Assembly: GCF_001729485.1 (NCBI RefSeq)
Contig: NZ_CP017157.1
Span: 5,270,001-5,334,000 of the forward strand
DNA from: Streptomyces lydicus
Lineage (GTDB): Bacteria; Actinomycetota; Actinomycetes; Streptomycetales; Streptomycetaceae
Direction: 5' to 3'
Length of the DNA: 64,000 nucleotides
In this document: piece by piece, positions 13,860-21,031 of the stretch
Numbering within the stretch: the first letter of the stretch is position 1
Layout: the number at the start of each line of letters is the position of its first letter
Notes under the pieces: generated by a model
What the model saw: only the letters and a program-made list of their open reading frames with translations
Told to the model about the DNA's origin: nothing
The model's database searches: none
Position numbers and translations under genes: made by a program

Positions 13860-14903
13860 TCAACCCGCGTGCAGCGCCTCGGGGTTGGCGCAGTGCACCA
13901 GCGGCTCGCCGCGCAGATGACGGCCGACCTCCTCGGCGACGATCCGGGCGGCCTTGTGCGCGACCTGCTGGCTGCCGCCCGCGATGTGCGGGGTGAGGAC
14001 GACGCCGGGGGCGGTCAGCAGCCGGTGGCCGGCGGGCAGCGGCTCCTCGGGGAAGACGTCGAAGCCGGCGCCGGCCAGCTGTCCCGCGTCCAGGGCGTCG
14101 CAGACCGCGTCGTAGTCGAGCAGCGCGCCCCGGGCGCAGTTGACCAGGACCGAGCCGCGCGGCATCGCGGCGAGCTGCGCGCGGCCGATCATGCCGGTGG
14201 TCTCCTCGGTGACCCGCGCGTGCAGCGAGACGATCCGGGACCGGGTCAACAGCTCGTCGAGCGGGACCTGTTCGGCGATGCCGGCCAGCGCCTCGGGGCG
14301 GACGTAGGGGTCGTGGACGAGGACCCGGGCGCCCATCGCGGCGAGGACCGTGGCGACCCGGCTGCCGATGGCGCCGAAGCCGATCAGGCCGACGGTGGCG
14401 CCGTCGATCTCGATGCCGCAGTTGTCGTAGTCGTAGTAGTCCCCGCGCCAGACGCCGCGCCGCAGGTCGGTGTGGGTGTCGCCGACGCCGCGGGCCGCGG
14501 CGAGCAGCAGGGTGAGGGTGTGTTCCGCGGTGGCGGTGGCGTTGCGGCCGGGGGCGTGGCAGACCGGGACGCCGTACCGGGTGGCGGCGTCGAGGTTGGC
14601 GTTGACGGGGCCGCCGCGGCTGGTGCAGAACAGCTTCAGGTCGGGGCAGTTGGCGAGGATGCGCTCGGTGAGCGGGCCGTGCTCGGTGACGCAGATCTCG
14701 ACGCCCTGGAGGGCCTCGATCATCCCGTCCTCGGTGCCGGACGCCTCGATGACCTCGGCGACCGGGCCGAAGGGGGTGTGCGGCCAGTCGAAGCGGATCT
14801 CCCGTACGTCCAGCGGAATGTCCCCGGCGGCCGTGCGCACGGCCTCGGTGAACAGGCCGGGGCGGATGAAGTGGTTGCCGGCGGCGAGGACGGTGGTGCT
14901 CAT
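13860..14903 (-). CDS. D-2-hydroxyacid dehydrogenase, last gene of the polyol/sugar operon
   Basis: This is a 347-residue NAD-dependent dehydrogenase of the D-3-phosphoglycerate dehydrogenase superfamily. The Rossmann motif GLIGFGAIGSRVATVLAAMG lies near residue 165. Catalytic residues are the arginine in NCARGALLD, the glutamate in FDVFPEEP and the histidine in TPHIAGGS. The reaction would interconvert a D-2-hydroxyacid and a 2-ketoacid; the specific substrate is not evident. It is last in a five-gene operon with a polyol permease, two FGGY kinases and a histidine phosphatase, 40 bases after the phosphatase gene, so its substrate is probably an acid made from the imported compound. ATG 14903 has CAGGAG upstream. 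Confidence 0.85.
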   Translation of the reverse strand: MSTTVLAAGNHFIRPGLFTEAVRTAAGDIPLDVREIRFDWPHTPFGPVAEVIEASGTEDGMIEALQGVEICVTEHGPLTERILANCPDLKLFCTSRGGPVNANLDAATRYGVPVCHAPGRNATATAEHTLTLLLAAARGVGDTHTDLRRGVWRGDYYDYDNCGIEIDGATVGLIGFGAIGSRVATVLAAMGARVLVHDPYVRPEALAGIAEQVPLDELLTRSRIVSLHARVTEETTGMIGRAQLAAMPRGSVLVNCARGALLDYDAVCDALDAGQLAGAGFDVFPEEPLPAGHRLLTAPGVVLTPHIAGGSQQVAHKAARIVAEEVGRHLRGEPLVHCANPEALHAG

Positions 14904-14943
14904 GAGGGCTTCGTCTCCTGAGGGGTTGCGGAGGGCGGCGTGG

Positions 14944-15570
14944 TCAGCGGAGGGCGGGGGCCCGGGTCGGCGCGGGGGCGTTGAAGCTGAGCAGTGCGGT
15001 CTGCCCGTGCTCGATGCGGATCTCGGTGAGCGCGCCGTTGTCGAGCCGGGGGAAGACCCGGCGGTAGTCGGCCAGCGGGATGCCCAGCAGATGGCAGAGC
15101 AGGACGCGTACGAGGGTGGAGTGGGCGACCACCAGGACCCGGCCGCGGGGTTGTTCGCGGGCGATGTCGGCGAGCGCCCCGGCGGCGCGTTCGGCGGCGT
15201 GCCGGGGGTGTTCGCCGTCGGGCAGATGGTGGTCGACGGGGTCGGCGAGGAAGGCGGCCAGCCGGTCCGGGAAGCGCTCGCGCATCTCGTCCCTGGTCAG
15301 CCCCTCGCCCTGGCCGAAGTCCACCTCGTAGAGCCGCTCGTCGAGGTGCGGGGTCAGTCCGCAGGCCGCGGCGGCGGGAGCGGCGGTGAGCCGGGCGCGG
15401 GAGAGCGGGGAGCTCCAGACGGCGCTGAGGCCGGCGGTGGCGGCCCAGGTGGCGAGGGCGGCGGCCTGTTCGCGGCCGTGGCCGGTGAGCGGCACGTCGG
15501 TGCGGCCGGCGTAGCGGTTCTCGGCGTGCCAGACGGTCTCGCCGTGGCGTACGAGGATGAAGTCGGTCAC
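14944..15570 (-). CDS. Histidine phosphatase family protein (phosphoglycerate mutase-like)
   Basis: This 208-residue enzyme has the family signature LVRHGETVW at residues 6-14, with the histidine that carries the phosphate. An arginine follows in SSPLSRARLTA and the second catalytic histidine is in VVAHSTLVRV. It resembles small-molecule phosphatases more than cofactor-dependent mutases. The GTG start at 15570 overlaps the stop of the upstream kinase (GTGA), and AGGAGGG lies about eight bases upstream, so translation is coupled to the kinase. In this operon it may remove phosphate from a pathway intermediate made by one of the kinases. Confidence 0.85.
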   Translation of the reverse strand: MTDFILVRHGETVWHAENRYAGRTDVPLTGHGREQAAALATWAATAGLSAVWSSPLSRARLTAAPAAAACGLTPHLDERLYEVDFGQGEGLTRDEMRERFPDRLAAFLADPVDHHLPDGEHPRHAAERAAGALADIAREQPRGRVLVVAHSTLVRVLLCHLLGIPLADYRRVFPRLDNGALTEIRIEHGQTALLSFNAPAPTRAPALR

Positions 15571-17081
15571 TGTGCTGCCCTCCTGCGGGCGTGGTCGGCC
15601 ACTGCCTGGCCGAGCCAGCCGCGGCGGGTGAGTTCGTCGATGAAGCGGAGGTGGACCGGGCCGTAGCGGGCGGTGCGGTCCGGCCGGGGTGCGATCTCCC
15701 GGTCGATGCGGACCATGGCGGCGGCCGCTTCCCGCAGGCCGGTACCCGAGGAGGTGGCGGCGAGCACGGCCATGCCCACCGCGCTCTCGGCCTGGTGCGG
15801 CAGCCGTACGGGGCGGCCGAGGACGTCGGCGCGCAGTTGGTTCCAGTAGGTGTTGCGGGCGCCGCCGCCGGTGAGGGTGAGCGGGCCGTCGACGGGTGCG
15901 CCCAGGTGGTCGAGGTGGTCGAAGCAGAGCCGTTCGAGGCAGGCCACGCCGAGGAGGCAGGCGTGGAACTCGGCGGCGCGGGTGGGGGTGTCGCCCAGGA
16001 CGAAGGGTTCGGCGCCGGGGGCGCGGAAGGGGAAGCGTTCGCCGCCGGCCGAGACCAGCGGGTAGGCGACCGCGTCCGGGTCCAGGGCCGCGGCCCGCGC
16101 GGTGAGGGCGTCCAGGTCGGCGCCGGGGAAGCGCTGGGTGAGGATGCCGGCGCCGCTGCTGGAGGCGCCGCCCGGCAGCCAGTTGTCGCCCGGTCCGCGG
16201 TGGCAGTAGACGACGCCCGCCGGGTCGCGGACCAGGTGCGGGCTGCTGCCCTTGAGGACGAGGGTGGTGCCGAGCACCGCGTTCCAGGAGCCCGGCGCCA
16301 GGGCTCCGGCGCCGATCTGCGCGGCGCAGCCGTCGGTCATCCCGGCGACGACGGTGGTGCCCTCGGGGATGCCGGTGGCCGCGGCGGCCCGGGCGCACAC
16401 CGCGCCGAGCACGGTCCCGGGACGGACGACCTCGGGCAACAGGCTTGCGGGCACGCCGAGTTCGGCCATCACCTGCTCCGGCCAGCGCTCCGCCACGAGG
16501 TGGTAGCCGGTCTTGAGGGCGTGGCTGGCGTCGCTCGCCGCCTGACGGCCCGTCAGGCGCCAGGTGATCAGGTCGACCTGGTGCAGCAGCCGGGCACCGG
16601 CCGGGGGCCGGCCGGCGTCCTCCAGCAGCGCCACGAGCTTGGGCAGCGCCCAGGACGGCTGCATGCTGCGGTAGCCCAGCTCCTGCCAGACGTCCGCCCC
16701 GGCGGCGTTCACGGCGGCGGCCCGGGGGCCGGCGCGCCCGTCGTCGTACATCAGCCCCGGGGTGAGCGGGGTGCCGTGGGCGTCGGCGAGCAGGATCGTG
16801 CCGGAGGTGCCGTCCACGGCCAGCCCGCGGACCTGCCGGGGATCGAGGCCGGTCAGGGCCTTGCGGCAGGCGGCGGACAGCGCGCCCCACCACTCCTCGG
16901 AGTCCTGCTCGTGCCGGTTGCCGTCGCGCCGGCTGGTCAGCGGGCGGGTGGCGGTGGCGAGGACCCGGCCGGTGCCGTCGACGGCGGCGCAGCGTGCGCT
17001 CTGGGTACCGAGGTCGAGGCCGAGCCAGATGCCGTCGAGGGGGGTGGCCGGGGTGCCGCGGGGGCGGTGCGGGTCAGTCAA
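15567..17081 (-). CDS. FGGY carbohydrate kinase, D-ribulose kinase-like
   Basis: The protein has 504 residues in two actin-like ATPase domains. GLDLGTQSARCAAVD (about 21-35) is the phosphate-1 loop. VDGTSGTILLAD near 89-100 and LMYDDGRAG at 110-118 resemble the bacterial and plant D-ribulose kinase (XK-1-like) group. The catalytic aspartate is probably D250 in AGMTDGCAAQ, and GGGARNTYWNQ is the C-terminal adenosine site. I chose a TTG start at 17081: GGAGG (complement of 17087-17091) is five bases upstream and no ATG or GTG lies nearby before the homologous region. It overlaps the preceding kinase by eight bases. The ribulose assignment rests on motif memory and is tentative. Confidence 0.82.
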   Translation of the reverse strand: MTDPHRPRGTPATPLDGIWLGLDLGTQSARCAAVDGTGRVLATATRPLTSRRDGNRHEQDSEEWWGALSAACRKALTGLDPRQVRGLAVDGTSGTILLADAHGTPLTPGLMYDDGRAGPRAAAVNAAGADVWQELGYRSMQPSWALPKLVALLEDAGRPPAGARLLHQVDLITWRLTGRQAASDASHALKTGYHLVAERWPEQVMAELGVPASLLPEVVRPGTVLGAVCARAAAATGIPEGTTVVAGMTDGCAAQIGAGALAPGSWNAVLGTTLVLKGSSPHLVRDPAGVVYCHRGPGDNWLPGGASSSGAGILTQRFPGADLDALTARAAALDPDAVAYPLVSAGGERFPFRAPGAEPFVLGDTPTRAAEFHACLLGVACLERLCFDHLDHLGAPVDGPLTLTGGGARNTYWNQLRADVLGRPVRLPHQAESAVGMAVLAATSSGTGLREAAAAMVRIDREIAPRPDRTARYGPVHLRFIDELTRRGWLGQAVADHARRRAAQ

Positions 17082-18684
17082 GGGTTCCTCCAGGGGCGGT
17101 ACGGGGGGTTGCCGCGGGGTCGACGGGGTTGCCGGTGGCCTCGGCCGCCCGTCGGGCGTTCCCCGGGCGGGCGGCGCCGCCGGGCCGCGCCGCCGCGGCT
17201 TCGGGCCACCGCGCGCGGCCGCGCCAGCCGGCCTCGCGGGCGAGCCCGCGCCACCCGAGGAAGTCCTCGTAAAGCGCGGCGTAGAACTCCGCCCGCGTCG
17301 GGTCCGGCTGCCAACTGCGCTGCATCCGGACGTACTTGGCGGCCGCGCTGTGCATGCTGGTCTCGGCCCCGGTGCGGACGAGACCGGTGAGGAAGGCGCC
17401 CTTGGCACCGAGTTCGGTGTCGCCGGAGCGGGCGGTGGGCACACCCGTGGCGTCCGCGATCAGTGCGCACCAGGCGTCGCTGTTGGCCCCGCCGCCGCAC
17501 AGCCGCAGCTCGCCGACGTCCGTGCGGGCCGCGGCCAGCGCGTCGCGCAGGACCAGCGAGAGCCCGTCGAAGACGGCGCGTGCCAGGTCGGCGGGGGTGT
17601 GCTCCAGGGACAGGCCCCAGAAGGAGCCACGGGCCCCCGGGTCGAGGAACGGGGCGCGCTCGCCGGCCGGCGAGAGGTACGGCAGGAACATCAGGCCGCG
17701 GGCGCCGGGCTCCGATTCGAAGGCCAGTTGTGCCAGCTCGGGCGGTCCGGGCAGGTGCAGCAGCCGGGCCGCCCAGCCGAGCACCTCGGCGCCGTTGAGG
17801 GTGGGGAAGGCCCGCAGCACGCGTTCGCGGCCGCGGTAGGCGATGTGGATGCCGGACGGCTCGCCGTCGGTGTCGATGTGGGTACGGACGATCTCGGTGC
17901 ACAGCGTGGTGCCGAGGATGGCGCACGCCTGGCCGGGGTTGACCACGCCCACGCCGCGGGCGGTGGAGGCGATGTCGTAGGGCGCCATCACGACCGGGAG
18001 CCCGGCGGGCAGGCCGAGTTCGGCGGCGGCCCGGCTGGTCATCTCGGCGATCCGCTGCGACTCCCCCAGGACGGTGGGCAGCAGCCGTTCGTAGGCGCCG
18101 AGGCCGAACAGGTCGAGGATGGCGGGGTCGTAGGCGCCGGTGGCGTGGTCGAGGAACGGGGCGGAGGCGTCGGATTCATCGGTCGCGCGGACCCCGGTGA
18201 ACCGCAGGAAGAGCCAGCCGGCGGCGGTGAGCGAGGTGGCGGAGCGGGCCAGCCGCCCGGGGTCGTGCGCGGCGAGCCAGCTGAAGAGGGCGTTGGGCAT
18301 CCCGGCGCAGGTCAGCGACCCGTTGCGGCGGAACGCGGCCTCCAGGACGCCCTCGCGCTGCCAGGCGGTCAGCTGGTCGCCGGCGCGGCCGTCGGACCAC
18401 AGGATGGCGGGCCCGGTGGGCCGGCCGCGGTCGTCGACGAACCAGGCGCCGTCGCCCTGGGCGGTGAAGGACACCAGCCAGACCGGGTCGGTCAGCCCGT
18501 CCAGCACGGTGCGGACGGTGTGCACGACGGCGTTCCAGACGGCGTCCATGTCCTGTTCGGCCCAGCCGGGGTGCGGGCGCAGCACCTCGGTGGTCCGGCG
18601 GGCGACGGCGATCTCGGTGCCCTGGTCGTCGAAGACCACGGACTTGATCACCGTGGTGCCGACGTCGACGGTCAGTACGGACAT
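17074..18684 (-). CDS. FGGY carbohydrate kinase, erythritol/polyol kinase-like
   Basis: The protein has 536 residues. VDVGTTVIKSVVFDDQG at 6-22 is the phosphate loop. TAQGDGAWFVDDRG near 74-87 and ILWSDGRAG at 94-102 resemble erythritol kinase (EryA) and its relatives. The catalytic aspartate is probably D237 (APYDIAS), and CGGGANSDAW is the late glycine-rich motif. The last ~45 residues are Ala/Pro/Gly/Arg-rich without domain similarity and overlap the start of the next gene. It is 13 bases downstream of the permease gene, with GAAAGG as ribosome site. It probably phosphorylates the imported polyol or its ketose. Its low similarity to the neighbouring kinase argues against recent duplication. 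Confidence 0.82.
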   Translation of the reverse strand: MSVLTVDVGTTVIKSVVFDDQGTEIAVARRTTEVLRPHPGWAEQDMDAVWNAVVHTVRTVLDGLTDPVWLVSFTAQGDGAWFVDDRGRPTGPAILWSDGRAGDQLTAWQREGVLEAAFRRNGSLTCAGMPNALFSWLAAHDPGRLARSATSLTAAGWLFLRFTGVRATDESDASAPFLDHATGAYDPAILDLFGLGAYERLLPTVLGESQRIAEMTSRAAAELGLPAGLPVVMAPYDIASTARGVGVVNPGQACAILGTTLCTEIVRTHIDTDGEPSGIHIAYRGRERVLRAFPTLNGAEVLGWAARLLHLPGPPELAQLAFESEPGARGLMFLPYLSPAGERAPFLDPGARGSFWGLSLEHTPADLARAVFDGLSLVLRDALAAARTDVGELRLCGGGANSDAWCALIADATGVPTARSGDTELGAKGAFLTGLVRTGAETSMHSAAAKYVRMQRSWQPDPTRAEFYAALYEDFLGWRGLAREAGWRGRARWPEAAAARPGGAARPGNARRAAEATGNPVDPAATPRTAPGGTLD

Positions 18685-18697
18685 CAGTGCGCGCCTT

Positions 18698-19999
18698 TCA
18701 CGCCGGTGCCGAGGCGGCGGCGGTCGCGGAGCCGGGGTCCGCGGCGGCGGCCCGGGCCGTCCCCGCCTCGTCCGGCAGCTGGAGGAAGTGGGCGAGCAGG
18801 AAGCTCACCGCGTACATCCCCGCGAAGATCCAGATGACCCCTTCGACGCCGAGCGGGCCGACGAAGACCGCGACGACGGCCGGGCCGACGAAGGTGCTGG
18901 CGCCCGCGCCCAGGTTGAGGGCGGCCAGCGCCTGCCCCTGGTGCTTCGGCTCCAGCGTGGGCACCAGCGCTGAAAGCGGGACATAACCTGCCAGCGTAGC
19001 GCCGTAGAAGGCGGCGACGAGGAGGGCGAGCGGGAAGTTCGGGCCCGCGACGTGCGGGACGTAGAAGAGCAGCAGGGTGCTCACCGTGCAGCCGGCACCG
19101 CCGAACCAGGCGATGGTGCGGCGCCAGCCGAGGCGGTCGCCGACCACGCCGAACAGCAGGTTGGCGAAGATGTTGGTGGCGAACATCGCGCTGAGCAGGT
19201 GCAGCCACTGGGTGAGGCTGAAGCCGACGGTCCTGGTGAAGTGGATCGGCATGATCACGAAGAAGCCGAACTGCGAGGCTGTGTTGATGACGCGGACGAG
19301 GGAGCCCACCCCGACCCGGGGGTTGCGCCACAGCACGGTGACACTGCCGACCAGCGTGGCCAGCGGCCCGTCCCCGGCGCGCGGCCGCCGGCCGCCGTGG
19401 TCGTCGCGGACCAGCAGCAGGGCGATCAGTCCGCCCGCGGCGACCAGGGCCAGCGCGGCCCACAGGGTGGCGTAGGAGCCGATCCGCGGGATGAGTCCGC
19501 TGGCGACGAGCGAGCCGAGGGTGGGCAGCCCGCCGGTGAAGGCGAACCAGAACCACCCCATGGCGGTGCCCAGCCGGGCCCGCGGCGCGACCCCGGCGAT
19601 CCAGACCAGGAAGCCGTACGCGAACAGCGGGTAGCCCAGGCCGCGCAGCCCGTAGCTGATCATCATCAGCGGGTAGCCGGCCAGCGGGATCGCCGCGGTC
19701 AGGAAGAGCAGCTGGAAGACGGCCCAGATGGCCAGGCCGGTCCACATCACGCGGCGCGGGCCCCAGAGGTCGGAGAGCACCCCGGAGAGCCAGGCGGCGA
19801 GGCCGGCCGCGATGCCGTAGACGGTGAAGAGCAGCGCGACCCGGGACTCCGAGACGCCCCGGTCGATGAGGTACGGCGACAGGTAGCCGGACTCGACCCC
19901 GTCTCCGATCATGAAGAGGAGGAGTCCGAGGTATCCCCAGGCGAGGGTCGGCGGGATGCCCAGGCGGGTGATCAGCGAACGCGGCGGAGAGTTCGTCAT
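18698..19999 (-). CDS. MFS polyol permease (RbtT/DalT-like)
   Basis: This is a 433-residue twelve-helix transporter. The start of helix 1 (WGYLGLLLFMIGDGVESGYL), the segment GLRGLGYPLFAYGFLVWI in helix 4-5, GTAMGWFWFAFTGG, and the cytoplasmic VRVINTASQFGFFVIMPIHF match the ribitol/D-arabinitol permeases RbtT and DalT closely as I remember them. It should import a polyol by proton symport. First gene of the catabolic operon; ATG 19999 is preceded by AAAGGGAG. The promoter and operator should lie in the 249-base gap shared with the divergent DeoR gene. Confidence 0.88.
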   Translation of the reverse strand: MTNSPPRSLITRLGIPPTLAWGYLGLLLFMIGDGVESGYLSPYLIDRGVSESRVALLFTVYGIAAGLAAWLSGVLSDLWGPRRVMWTGLAIWAVFQLLFLTAAIPLAGYPLMMISYGLRGLGYPLFAYGFLVWIAGVAPRARLGTAMGWFWFAFTGGLPTLGSLVASGLIPRIGSYATLWAALALVAAGGLIALLLVRDDHGGRRPRAGDGPLATLVGSVTVLWRNPRVGVGSLVRVINTASQFGFFVIMPIHFTRTVGFSLTQWLHLLSAMFATNIFANLLFGVVGDRLGWRRTIAWFGGAGCTVSTLLLFYVPHVAGPNFPLALLVAAFYGATLAGYVPLSALVPTLEPKHQGQALAALNLGAGASTFVGPAVVAVFVGPLGVEGVIWIFAGMYAVSFLLAHFLQLPDEAGTARAAAADPGSATAAASAPA

Positions 20000-20174
20000 C
20001 GAATCTCCCTTTCTGCGGCGGCGGCAGGAGGGGTGAGGGGTGGGAACGGAGCGATGGAACAGCCGCGCAGAATCGGGCGTCAATGGCCGGTGGAATCTTC
20101 GCACCGAAGCCATGACCAGCCATGTTGCGTCCCACCGGAACCGCATGTGGACACCGCGGCCGCCGCGCGCGCAG

Positions 20175-20193
20175 TGTTAAATCCGTGCGAACA
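20175..20193. promoter_or_regulatory. Candidate DeoR operator between regulator and polyol operon
   Basis: TGTT (20175-20178) and AACA (20190-20193) form an inverted repeat with an 11-base spacer inside an unusually AT-rich patch (TGTTAAATCCGTGCGAACA). It lies about 55 bases before the DeoR start and 175 bases before the permease start. The short arms make this a weak call. Confidence 0.3.
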
Positions 20194-20248
20194 TAACGCG
20201 GCGAATTCACCGGGTGGACGGGGCGGCGCCGGCGGAGGGAGCGGAGCG

Positions 20249-21031
20249 ATGGACCGGGTCGAGGCCCAGGAGGAGCGGCGGCGCCGGATGCGCGAGACCG
20301 TCATCGCCCGCGGTTTCGTGCGCACCGCGGATCTCGCGGAGGAGTTCGGCATCAGTCTGATGACCGCGCACCGGGACCTGGACGCCCTCCAGGCGCAGGG
20401 CTGGCTGCGCAAGGTCCGCGGCGGCGCGACCGGACTGCCCTCGGCTCAGTTCCACGGCAGCGTCGCGGAGCGGATGGCGACCATGGCACAGACCAAGCAG
20501 CAGCTGGCGCGGGCCGCCGCGACGCTGCTGGTCCCCGGCCAGTCGGTGCTGCTCGACGACAGCACGACCTGTCTGCTGCTGGCGCACCAGGCCGCGGAGC
20601 ACTCCCCGCTGACCGTGCTCACCAACTCGCTGCCGGCCATCACCACCCTGGCCAAGGAGCCCGGCATCTCCCTGATCACCCTGGGCGGCGCCTACTTCCC
20701 CGCGTACGACGCCTTCATGGGGCCGCACACCGCCGACGCGGTGCGGGCGTTCCGCGCCGATGTCCTCTTCATGTCGACCACCGCCGTGACCAACGGCCGC
20801 TGCTACCACACGTCACCGGAGACCGTGCAGGTCAAGCGCGCCATGATGGAGAGCGCCGGGCGGCGCATCCTGGTCGCGGACCACACCAAGTTCGCCAAGG
20901 GCGGCCTGTACGCGCTGGCGCCGCTGACCGACTTCGACCTGCTGATCGTCGACGACGGCCTGCCGGCGGAACACCTGCGCCGGATACGGGCGGCCGGTAC
21001 CGAGGTGCTGGTGGTACCGGCCCGCCCGTAG
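20249..21031 (+). CDS. DeoR family transcriptional regulator of the polyol operon
   Basis: This is a 260-residue protein. Residues about 6-60 are the DeoR winged helix (FVRTADLAEEFGISLMTAHR, then KVRGGA). The C-terminal DeoRC sensor domain has LLDDSTTCLLLAH and ILVADHTKFAKGGL, the usual sugar-phosphate pocket motifs. Family members repress sugar operons and are released by a phosphorylated intermediate, which here would be a kinase product. Divergent from the five-gene operon, with GGAGGGAGCGGAGCG before the ATG at 20249. Confidence 0.9.
   Translation: MDRVEAQEERRRRMRETVIARGFVRTADLAEEFGISLMTAHRDLDALQAQGWLRKVRGGATGLPSAQFHGSVAERMATMAQTKQQLARAAATLLVPGQSVLLDDSTTCLLLAHQAAEHSPLTVLTNSLPAITTLAKEPGISLITLGGAYFPAYDAFMGPHTADAVRAFRADVLFMSTTAVTNGRCYHTSPETVQVKRAMMESAGRRILVADHTKFAKGGLYALAPLTDFDLLIVDDGLPAEHLRRIRAAGTEVLVVPARP

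What the first reader, a model, noticed from the sequence alone, without database searches (positions are those of the whole stretch)
13860..21031. Unusual polyol catabolic operon with two different FGGY kinases, a phosphatase and a D-2-hydroxyacid dehydrogenase
The five genes are tightly packed (overlaps of 4 and 8 bases, gaps of 13 and 40) and face a DeoR regulator. The permease resembles RbtT/DalT. One kinase looks like erythritol/polyol kinases, the other like D-ribulose kinase. No polyol dehydrogenase of the usual SDR or MDR type is present; the only oxidoreductase is of the phosphoglycerate dehydrogenase type, and a histidine phosphatase is coupled to the second kinase. A route using two phosphorylations or a phosphorylation/dephosphorylation step would be new to me. 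This is the strongest candidate for an undescribed pathway.
Basis: partly seen in the sequence, partly recalled or inferred. Interest (0 to 1): 0.8.

Follow-up and report, generated by a model that had tools for sequence, protein, structure and literature searches.

The report
Sugar-alcohol operon with phosphate relay
A Streptomyces gene cluster appears to break down a sugar alcohol, probably ribitol, by adding a phosphate, oxidising the molecule, removing the phosphate and adding one back at the other end; the chemistry is inferred, although related genes are known to be involved in ribitol use in a root-nodule bacterium.

Summary
The operon is real and correctly described: divergent DeoR regulator, RbtT/DalT-family permease, FGGY kinases K1 and K2, histidine phosphatase PH, and a 2-hydroxyacid-dehydrogenase-type oxidoreductase DH. 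It is conserved: 69 of 80 named K1 loci carry all four enzymes; in 297 Streptomycetaceae genomes DH (63 genomes), K2 (64) and PH (66) coincide in 63. Five Streptomycetaceae loci carry, with K1 and DH, an unrelated phosphatase (HAD) and second kinase (Dak type) plus an RpiB-type isomerase: same roles, other proteins. K1 falls in the erythritol-kinase/L-xylulokinase clade; K2 is D-ribulose-kinase-like. The Sinorhizobium erythritol/adonitol/L-arabitol locus holds EryA, a DH homologue (by position RbtA), a K2 homologue (RbtB) and a HAD phosphatase (RbtC); published genetics link lalA-rbtABC to adonitol (ribitol) and L-arabitol, not erythritol. Best reading: ribitol -> ribitol-1-P (K1) -> ribulose-1-P (DH) -> ribulose (PH) -> ribulose-5-P (K2). 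The gene set and its conservation are shown; every reaction is inferred. I rate it a new variant of a known kind.

The parts
20249..21031 (+). DeoR/GlpR-family regulator, divergent from the operon
   Evidence: HTH_DeoR and DeoRC; a homologue passes the threshold in 75 of 80 named loci
20176..20210 (.). Conserved 35-base element in the regulator-permease gap (gtgaattcgccgcgttatgttcgcacggatttaac, read on the minus strand), with GTTA...TAAC ends; candidate regulator site
   Evidence: Stands out in the alignment of 28 intergenic stretches, the window's among them; no binding test
18698..19999 (-). RbtT/DalT/CsbX-family MFS permease
   Evidence: TIGR00897 559 bits, cut-off 375; searches missed it because I gave a wrong frame
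17074..18684 (-). K1, FGGY kinase; proposed polyol (ribitol) 1-kinase
   Evidence: FGGY domains; in the EryA/LyxK clade, GD at the first two signature positions as in EryA
15567..17081 (-). K2, FGGY kinase; proposed D-ribulose 5-kinase
   Evidence: Best solved-structure match is the SePSK entry 5htn, 168.6 bits; clade with the S. meliloti kinase that is RbtB by position, 100/100
14944..15570 (-). PH, histidine phosphatase; proposed ribulose-1-phosphate phosphatase
   Evidence: His_Phos_1; R8, H9, R58, E82, H150 invariant in 11 relatives
13860..14903 (-). DH, 2-hydroxyacid-dehydrogenase-family oxidoreductase; proposed NAD-dependent ribitol-1-phosphate 2-dehydrogenase
   Evidence: 2-Hacid_dh domains; R258, E287, H306, D198 (full-length numbers) invariant in 13 relatives from bacteria and archaea (where numbering is one lower)

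Best explanation
A polyol-catabolic operon that works as a phosphate relay. The permease imports a sugar alcohol, most likely ribitol. K1 phosphorylates it at one end (ribitol-1-phosphate). DH oxidises the hydroxyl next to the phosphate with NAD to give D-ribulose-1-phosphate. PH removes that phosphate; hydrolysis would also pull the unfavourable NAD-linked oxidation. K2 phosphorylates D-ribulose at C5, giving D-ribulose-5-phosphate for the pentose phosphate pathway. DeoR controls it. Shown: gene set, families, conserved catalytic residues, co-occurrence, rearrangement and partner changes. Inferred: every reaction, the order of steps and the substrate.
For: (1) Linkage: DH, K2 and PH coincide in 63 of 297 genomes; DH never without K2 or PH there; one genome has K2 and three have PH without DH. 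Of 64 DH loci other than the window's, K1 lies within 9 kb in 62 (next gene in 48), and a phosphatase plus a second kinase in 58. (2) Roles kept with other proteins: five loci have K1 and DH with a HAD phosphatase, a Dak-type kinase and RpiB (L118, L128, L132, L141; L151 also has PH and K2). (3) K1 lies in a clade with EryA and LyxK (20 rows, 92/96), apart from XylB, RhaB, FucK and GlpK. EryA of S. meliloti serves erythritol, adonitol and L-arabitol. (4) The S. meliloti-type locus has the order eryA, DH homologue, fucA, eryB, a second aldolase-fold gene, K2 homologue, HAD phosphatase, eryC; matched with the published gene list these are rbtA, lalA, rbtB, rbtC. (5) In 12 of 12 annotated loci outside Actinomycetota that I opened, the FGGY-DH pair has an annotated aldolase or class II aldolase-family gene beside it, which fits a ketose-1-phosphate intermediate. 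(6) Transport: RbtT/DalT family; other Streptomyces loci carry a binding protein 45% identical to the Gemmobacter homologue of MptA whose best solved relative is named sorbitol-binding. (7) K2 is closest to SePSK, which has D-ribulose kinase activity.
Against: No enzyme of this set has been assayed. I know of no 2-hydroxyacid dehydrogenase-family enzyme shown to oxidise a polyol phosphate. S. meliloti carries the GlpD-type EryB beside RbtA, and the 2013 table lists EryB in genomes thought to use only adonitol/L-arabitol and lists Mesorhizobium ciceri with RbtB and RbtC but no RbtA, so RbtA need not be the dehydrogenase there. FucA is reported as not needed for any of the three polyols, which weakens the aldolase argument. 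Seven of 80 named loci have K1, K2 and PH but no full DH. All five genomes with HAD-Dak loci also carry K2 and PH, so the HAD-Dak module is an extra locus rather than a clean replacement. K1 may lie nearer LyxK than EryA (open fork). The co-occurrence statistics are not corrected for kinship.
Confidence: 0.6

Rival explanations
1. Same relay, other substrate: a tetritol (erythritol or threitol) or another pentitol; K2 would then be an erythrulose-type kinase using a housekeeping RpiB elsewhere in the genome.
For: The related L118-type loci carry a Dak-type kinase and an isomerase that scores over RPI_actino and matches the DerI model below its cut-off; EryA-type kinases accept erythritol, adonitol and L-arabitol.
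Against: K2 is D-ribulose-kinase-like; L151 carries both the K2-PH and the Dak-HAD-RpiB modules, which suggests different ketoses; rbtABC are reported as not involved in erythritol use.
Confidence: 0.2
2. A sugar-acid pathway: DH acts as an ordinary 2-hydroxyacid dehydrogenase or 2-keto acid reductase on an aldonate-type substrate or product, and the kinases act on acids.
For: All family matches of DH are to enzymes acting on 2-hydroxy acids and its catalytic residues are intact.
Against: Permease and binding proteins are of polyol or pentose types; Dak-type kinase and RpiB in related loci act on ketoses; DH passes no curated NCBIfam cut-off.
Confidence: 0.1
3. Two parallel substrates plus repair: K1 and K2 serve different substrates, and PH only removes wrongly phosphorylated by-products.
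For: In G171 a K1-K2-PH-DeoR set stands without an adjacent DH (L117) while DH lies in another locus.
Against: Strict coincidence of DH, K2 and PH in 63 genomes; three different kinds of phosphatase in the same kind of locus.
Confidence: 0.1

Closest known systems
Sinorhizobium meliloti eryA + rbtABC (adonitol part of the erythritol/adonitol/L-arabitol locus)
   Same: EryA-type kinase, 2-hydroxyacid dehydrogenase homologue (by position RbtA, 43%), K2 homologue (RbtB, 35%) and a phosphatase gene in one polyol locus
   Different: Phosphatase is HAD-IIA, not histidine type; ABC transporter MptABCDE instead of MFS; eryB, lalA and eryC are also there; the gene names rest on order and elimination
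Klebsiella/E. coli C-type ribitol and D-arabitol operons (recalled)
   Same: RbtT/DalT-family permease and a ketopentose kinase of the FGGY family
   Different: Those oxidise the free polyol with a polyol dehydrogenase and use one kinase; here no such dehydrogenase, two kinases and a phosphatase
Brucella/Rhizobium erythritol pathway (eryABC, tpiB, rpiB)
   Same: Polyol kinase first, then oxidation to a ketose-1-phosphate (recalled; erythrulose-1-phosphate intermediates in the passages)
   Different: GlpD-type EryB, epimerase and isomerases in place of DH, phosphatase and second kinase
Mycolicibacterium smegmatis tetritol pathways
   Same: Ketose kinase late in the route; Dak-type kinase and RpiB-type isomerase appear in the L118-type loci (identity of the M. 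smegmatis kinases as Dak type is recalled)
   Different: Oxidation before phosphorylation, no phosphatase (passages)
Haloarchaeal non-carboxylating pentose bisphosphate pathway
   Same: A phosphatase makes ribulose-1-phosphate, which an aldolase cleaves; so that intermediate exists in catabolism (passages)
   Different: Starts from nucleosides via bisphosphates, no FGGY kinases

Membership tests
S. meliloti-type eryA-rbtABC adonitol module | EryA-type polyol kinase | tested here: met
   K1 in the EryA/LyxK clade (92/96); GD signature as in EryA; 32% identity to EryA of S. meliloti
S. meliloti-type eryA-rbtABC adonitol module | RbtA-type 2-hydroxyacid dehydrogenase homologue | tested here: met
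   43% identity over 338 residues; name assigned by gene order
S. meliloti-type eryA-rbtABC adonitol module | RbtB-type FGGY kinase | tested here: met
   35% identity, four-row clade at 100/100
S. meliloti-type eryA-rbtABC adonitol module | RbtC-type HAD-IIA phosphatase | tested here: not met
   The window has a histidine phosphatase instead; RbtC by position is TIGR01459 HAD-IIA
S. meliloti-type eryA-rbtABC adonitol module | Needed for growth on adonitol | not testable with these tools
   Needs mutants
Classical ribitol/D-arabitol operon (rbt/dal) | RbtT/DalT-family permease | tested here: met
   TIGR00897 559 bits against 375
Classical ribitol/D-arabitol operon (rbt/dal) | Polyol dehydrogenase acting on the free polyol | tested here: not met
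   Only a 2-hydroxyacid dehydrogenase-type gene in the operon
Erythritol pathway (ery) | GlpD-type EryB and the EryC/TpiB/RpiB isomerases | tested here: not met
   None in the window operon; no GlpD-type hit near any of the 64 DH loci
Curated xylulokinase/ribulokinase/gluconokinase families (NCBIfam) | Score over the curated cut-off | tested here: not met
   Best is XylB: K1 241 bits, K2 172 bits, cut-off 380
Histidine phosphatase branch 1 | His_Phos_1 domain with RHG motif and conserved active-site R, E, H | tested here: met
   roles of the residues recalled
D-2-hydroxyacid dehydrogenase family | NAD-binding and catalytic domains with catalytic R, E, H | tested here: met
   roles recalled
D-2-hydroxyacid dehydrogenase family | Oxidises a 2-hydroxy acid | not testable with these tools
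   Needs enzyme assay

The most novel reading that the evidence does not exclude
A general catabolic strategy for sugar alcohols: an EryA-type kinase and a 2-hydroxyacid-dehydrogenase-type enzyme turn the polyol into a ketose-1-phosphate by NAD-linked oxidation of a polyol phosphate with no carboxylate; this is then either cleaved by an aldolase, or dephosphorylated and re-phosphorylated at the other end by exchangeable phosphatase-kinase pairs (His/FGGY, HAD/Dak, HAD-IIA/FGGY), costing two ATP per polyol.
Probability: 0.42. Interest if true: 0.75.

Novelty: new variant of a known kind. Interest (0 to 1): 0.6.

Why it matters
If right, it gives a role to every gene of a set found in about a fifth (63 of 297) of sampled Streptomycetaceae genomes, proposes what rbtA, rbtB and rbtC do in rhizobia, adds polyol phosphates to the substrates of one of the best-studied dehydrogenase families, and shows phosphate being moved along a sugar by a phosphatase and a second kinase where other organisms use isomerases. 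Four assays and one deletion in a laboratory strain would decide it.

Tried and rejected
Considered and dropped: 2-ketogluconate-type acid pathway (transporters and ketose enzymes do not fit); bisphosphate pathway in which K2 phosphorylates an already phosphorylated sugar (not needed once the Sinorhizobium locus was recognised; not excluded by a test); two independent substrates with a repair phosphatase (kept as a rival). The PDB search with the permease found nothing. Paper searches returned no paper; others returned lists in which I saw no description of this operon or of the relay. Only open-licence PMC papers are searched; the key 2012 paper (Geddes and Oresnik) and Barbier 2014 are not held, so I cannot say the chemistry is absent from print. 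The phylum-wide K1 search hit 10 of 396 genomes at E 1e-60, the window's own genome among them. In the phylum-wide DH search 28 of 396 genomes matched at E 1e-80, 8 of them above the score gap.

Slips: searches used a wrong frame for the permease (corrected). In alignment A2 the window DH lacks its first residue and numbering is one lower. L167 had no DH called by my gene finder and was counted from the middle of its stretch. My gene caller is home-made; many neighbour genes stayed unidentified, so I do not claim that no other oxidoreductase is conserved there.
Full report
What is there. The window lies in an 8.2 Mb single-contig genome whose closest named relative of this operon is Streptomyces lydicus (97-98% for K1). 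The operon reads, on the minus strand, permease, K1, K2, PH, DH, with a DeoR gene facing it. The permease is RbtT/DalT/CsbX family. K1 and K2 are FGGY kinases that pass no curated NCBIfam cut-off. K2 is closest among solved structures to SePSK, for which D-ribulose kinase activity was reported (PMC4880283, passages read). PH and DH have intact conserved residues.

How conserved it is. A scan of one genome per species gave 251 confirmed K1 relatives, of which the best 80 were kept. Of these 80, 69 have K1, K2, PH and DH within the fetched stretch, 68 in the same order and orientation and one rearranged (L095); seven have K1, K2 and PH but no or only partial DH (L063, L065-L068, L071, L090); three end at the contig edge; one (L084) has broken K1 and K2 frames. 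The genera include Streptomyces, Hoyosella, Streptoalloteichus, Longimycelium, Glycomyces, Amycolatopsis, Prauserella, Arthrobacter, Nonomuraea and others. The transporter changes while the enzymes stay: MFS, MFS fused to a HAD phosphatase (Pfam check on L072 and L078), or a CUT2 ABC importer with a XylF-like binding protein.

Anchoring on DH alone. A profile of 13 DH relatives (A2) shows a gap between this subfamily (438 bits and more) and other 2-hydroxyacid dehydrogenases (306 and less) in 297 Streptomycetaceae genomes: 63 genomes, 65 loci. I fetched the 62 loci not yet held and added L115 and L118; the window's own locus is left out, giving 64. K1 lies within 9 kb in 62, directly beside DH in 48; a phosphatase and a second kinase lie within 9 kb in 58. 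The six others: L148 (PH just beyond 9 kb), L149, L150 and L115 (the fetched stretch ends at K2), L162 (contig end), and L142, a true miss in a genome that has a complete second locus, L121. K1 is missing near DH in L178 and L182 (the latter at a contig end). Profiles of K2 and PH searched in the same 297 genomes gave 64 and 66 genomes; all three coincide in 63, K2 without DH in one (at a lower score) and PH without DH in three. Kinship was not corrected for. At phylum level eight of 396 genomes lie above the gap for DH.

The roles are filled by unrelated proteins. L118, L128, L132, L141 and L151 carry, with K1 and DH, a HAD phosphatase whose best model is hexitol phosphatase HxpB (below its cut-off), a dihydroxyacetone-kinase-family kinase (above cut-off) and an RpiB-type isomerase (above the RPI_actino cut-off, also matching D-erythrulose-4-phosphate isomerase below cut-off) (L118 tested; the others by similarity). 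L116, from another family, has K1, DH, a HAD-IIA phosphatase, RpiB and another FGGY kinase. In the DH tree the HAD-Dak loci sit inside the clade of PH-K2 loci and the label needs two changes (only three rows after thinning, weak statistics). Against a simple swap: the five genomes also carry K2 and PH, so these are additional loci, perhaps for a ketose of another length.

What K1 does. In a tree of 29 FGGY kinases K1 falls with EryA of Rhizobium, LyxK of E. coli and kinases of other DH loci (20 rows, 92/96), away from XylB, RhaB, FucK and GlpK; within that clade its place between EryA and LyxK is open. At the five specificity positions of Zhang et al. 2011 (PMC3245297, passages read) K1 reads GDGDC, EryA GDCDV, LyxK GKGDV, XylB MHGDV, RhaB GVFDL, FucK GVFDI, K2 SGSDV. 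This favours a polyol kinase over a ketose-1-kinase.

The Sinorhizobium key. L102 and its relatives L194 and L195 have the order transporter, eryA-type kinase, DH homologue, FucA-type aldolase (absent in L195, S. fredii NGR234), GlpD-type gene, second aldolase-fold gene, K2 homologue, HAD-IIA phosphatase, isomerase, DeoR, TIM. Geddes et al. [quoted passage not shown] By order and elimination rbtA is the DH homologue, rbtB the K2 homologue and rbtC the HAD phosphatase. I could not see the paper's figure; the naming is mine. The primary 2012 paper is not held.

Mechanism. EryA-type kinase first, then oxidation next to the phosphate, is the known logic of the erythritol route (erythrulose-1-phosphate intermediates; PMC10733421 and PMC12780249, passages). 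Replacing EryB by DH and the epimerase and isomerase steps by a phosphatase and a second kinase gives the relay proposed here, and for ribitol it ends directly in D-ribulose-5-phosphate. LalA, of an aldolase/4-epimerase fold, would join L-arabitol to the same line (inference). Outside Actinomycetota, 12 of 12 annotated loci with an FGGY-DH pair that I opened have an annotated aldolase or class II aldolase-family gene beside it, of several families (L101-L105, L109, L184-L189; chosen by me from longer hit lists, not at random), and Halapricum pairs a K1-like kinase with an aldolase and GlpABC instead of DH. These fit a ketose-1-phosphate intermediate, but the finding that fucA is dispensable in S. 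meliloti warns against reading too much into them.

What remains open. No reaction is shown. EryB beside RbtA in Sinorhizobium, the lack of RbtA in Mesorhizobium ciceri in the published table, and the DH-less Streptomyces loci all leave room for DH doing something else. I put the relay with a polyol, most likely ribitol, at 0.6.

Noticed in passing
G000:C1:5265109-5265621 (about 4.4 kb before the window start): Another FGGY C-terminal domain in a 922-aa open frame; about a third identical to K2 over part of its length.
   Followed up: no
L072 5865-7946; L078 6025-8001; also L076, L077, L081: RbtT-type permease of 655-694 aa carrying a C-terminal HAD hydrolase domain (Pfam run on L072 and L078 only).
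   Followed up: partly
L063, L066, L067, L068, L071: In the S. violaceusniger group DH is absent or truncated, and a glycosidase-like gene (my reading of the sequence) with a CUT1 ABC importer lies beyond the regulator.
   Followed up: no
L104, L105, L187, L188: Rhodobacterales cluster of CoA transferases, DH homologue, aldolase, FGGY kinase, acetolactate-synthase-like enzyme and molybdopterin oxidoreductase; substrate unknown.
   Followed up: no
L109, L189: Haloarchaeal trio of class II fructose-bisphosphate aldolase, FGGY kinase and DH homologue.
   Followed up: no
L178 (G404): K2, DeoR and PH face DH and a class II aldolase homologue, with no K1 found nearby.
   Followed up: no
L111, L113: K2-PH-DH in the window's order within a larger cluster that also has a K1 homologue, two aldolase-type genes and, in L113, an MDR dehydrogenase.
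   Followed up: partly
L086: Contig labelled Verrucomicrobiota MAG with a K1-K2-PH-DH set 56-61% identical to the window's; possibly a misassigned actinobacterial contig.
   Followed up: no
L102 13584-14102: The HAD-IIA frame ends early in this S. meliloti record, while L194 and L195 have 281-aa versions.
   Followed up: partly
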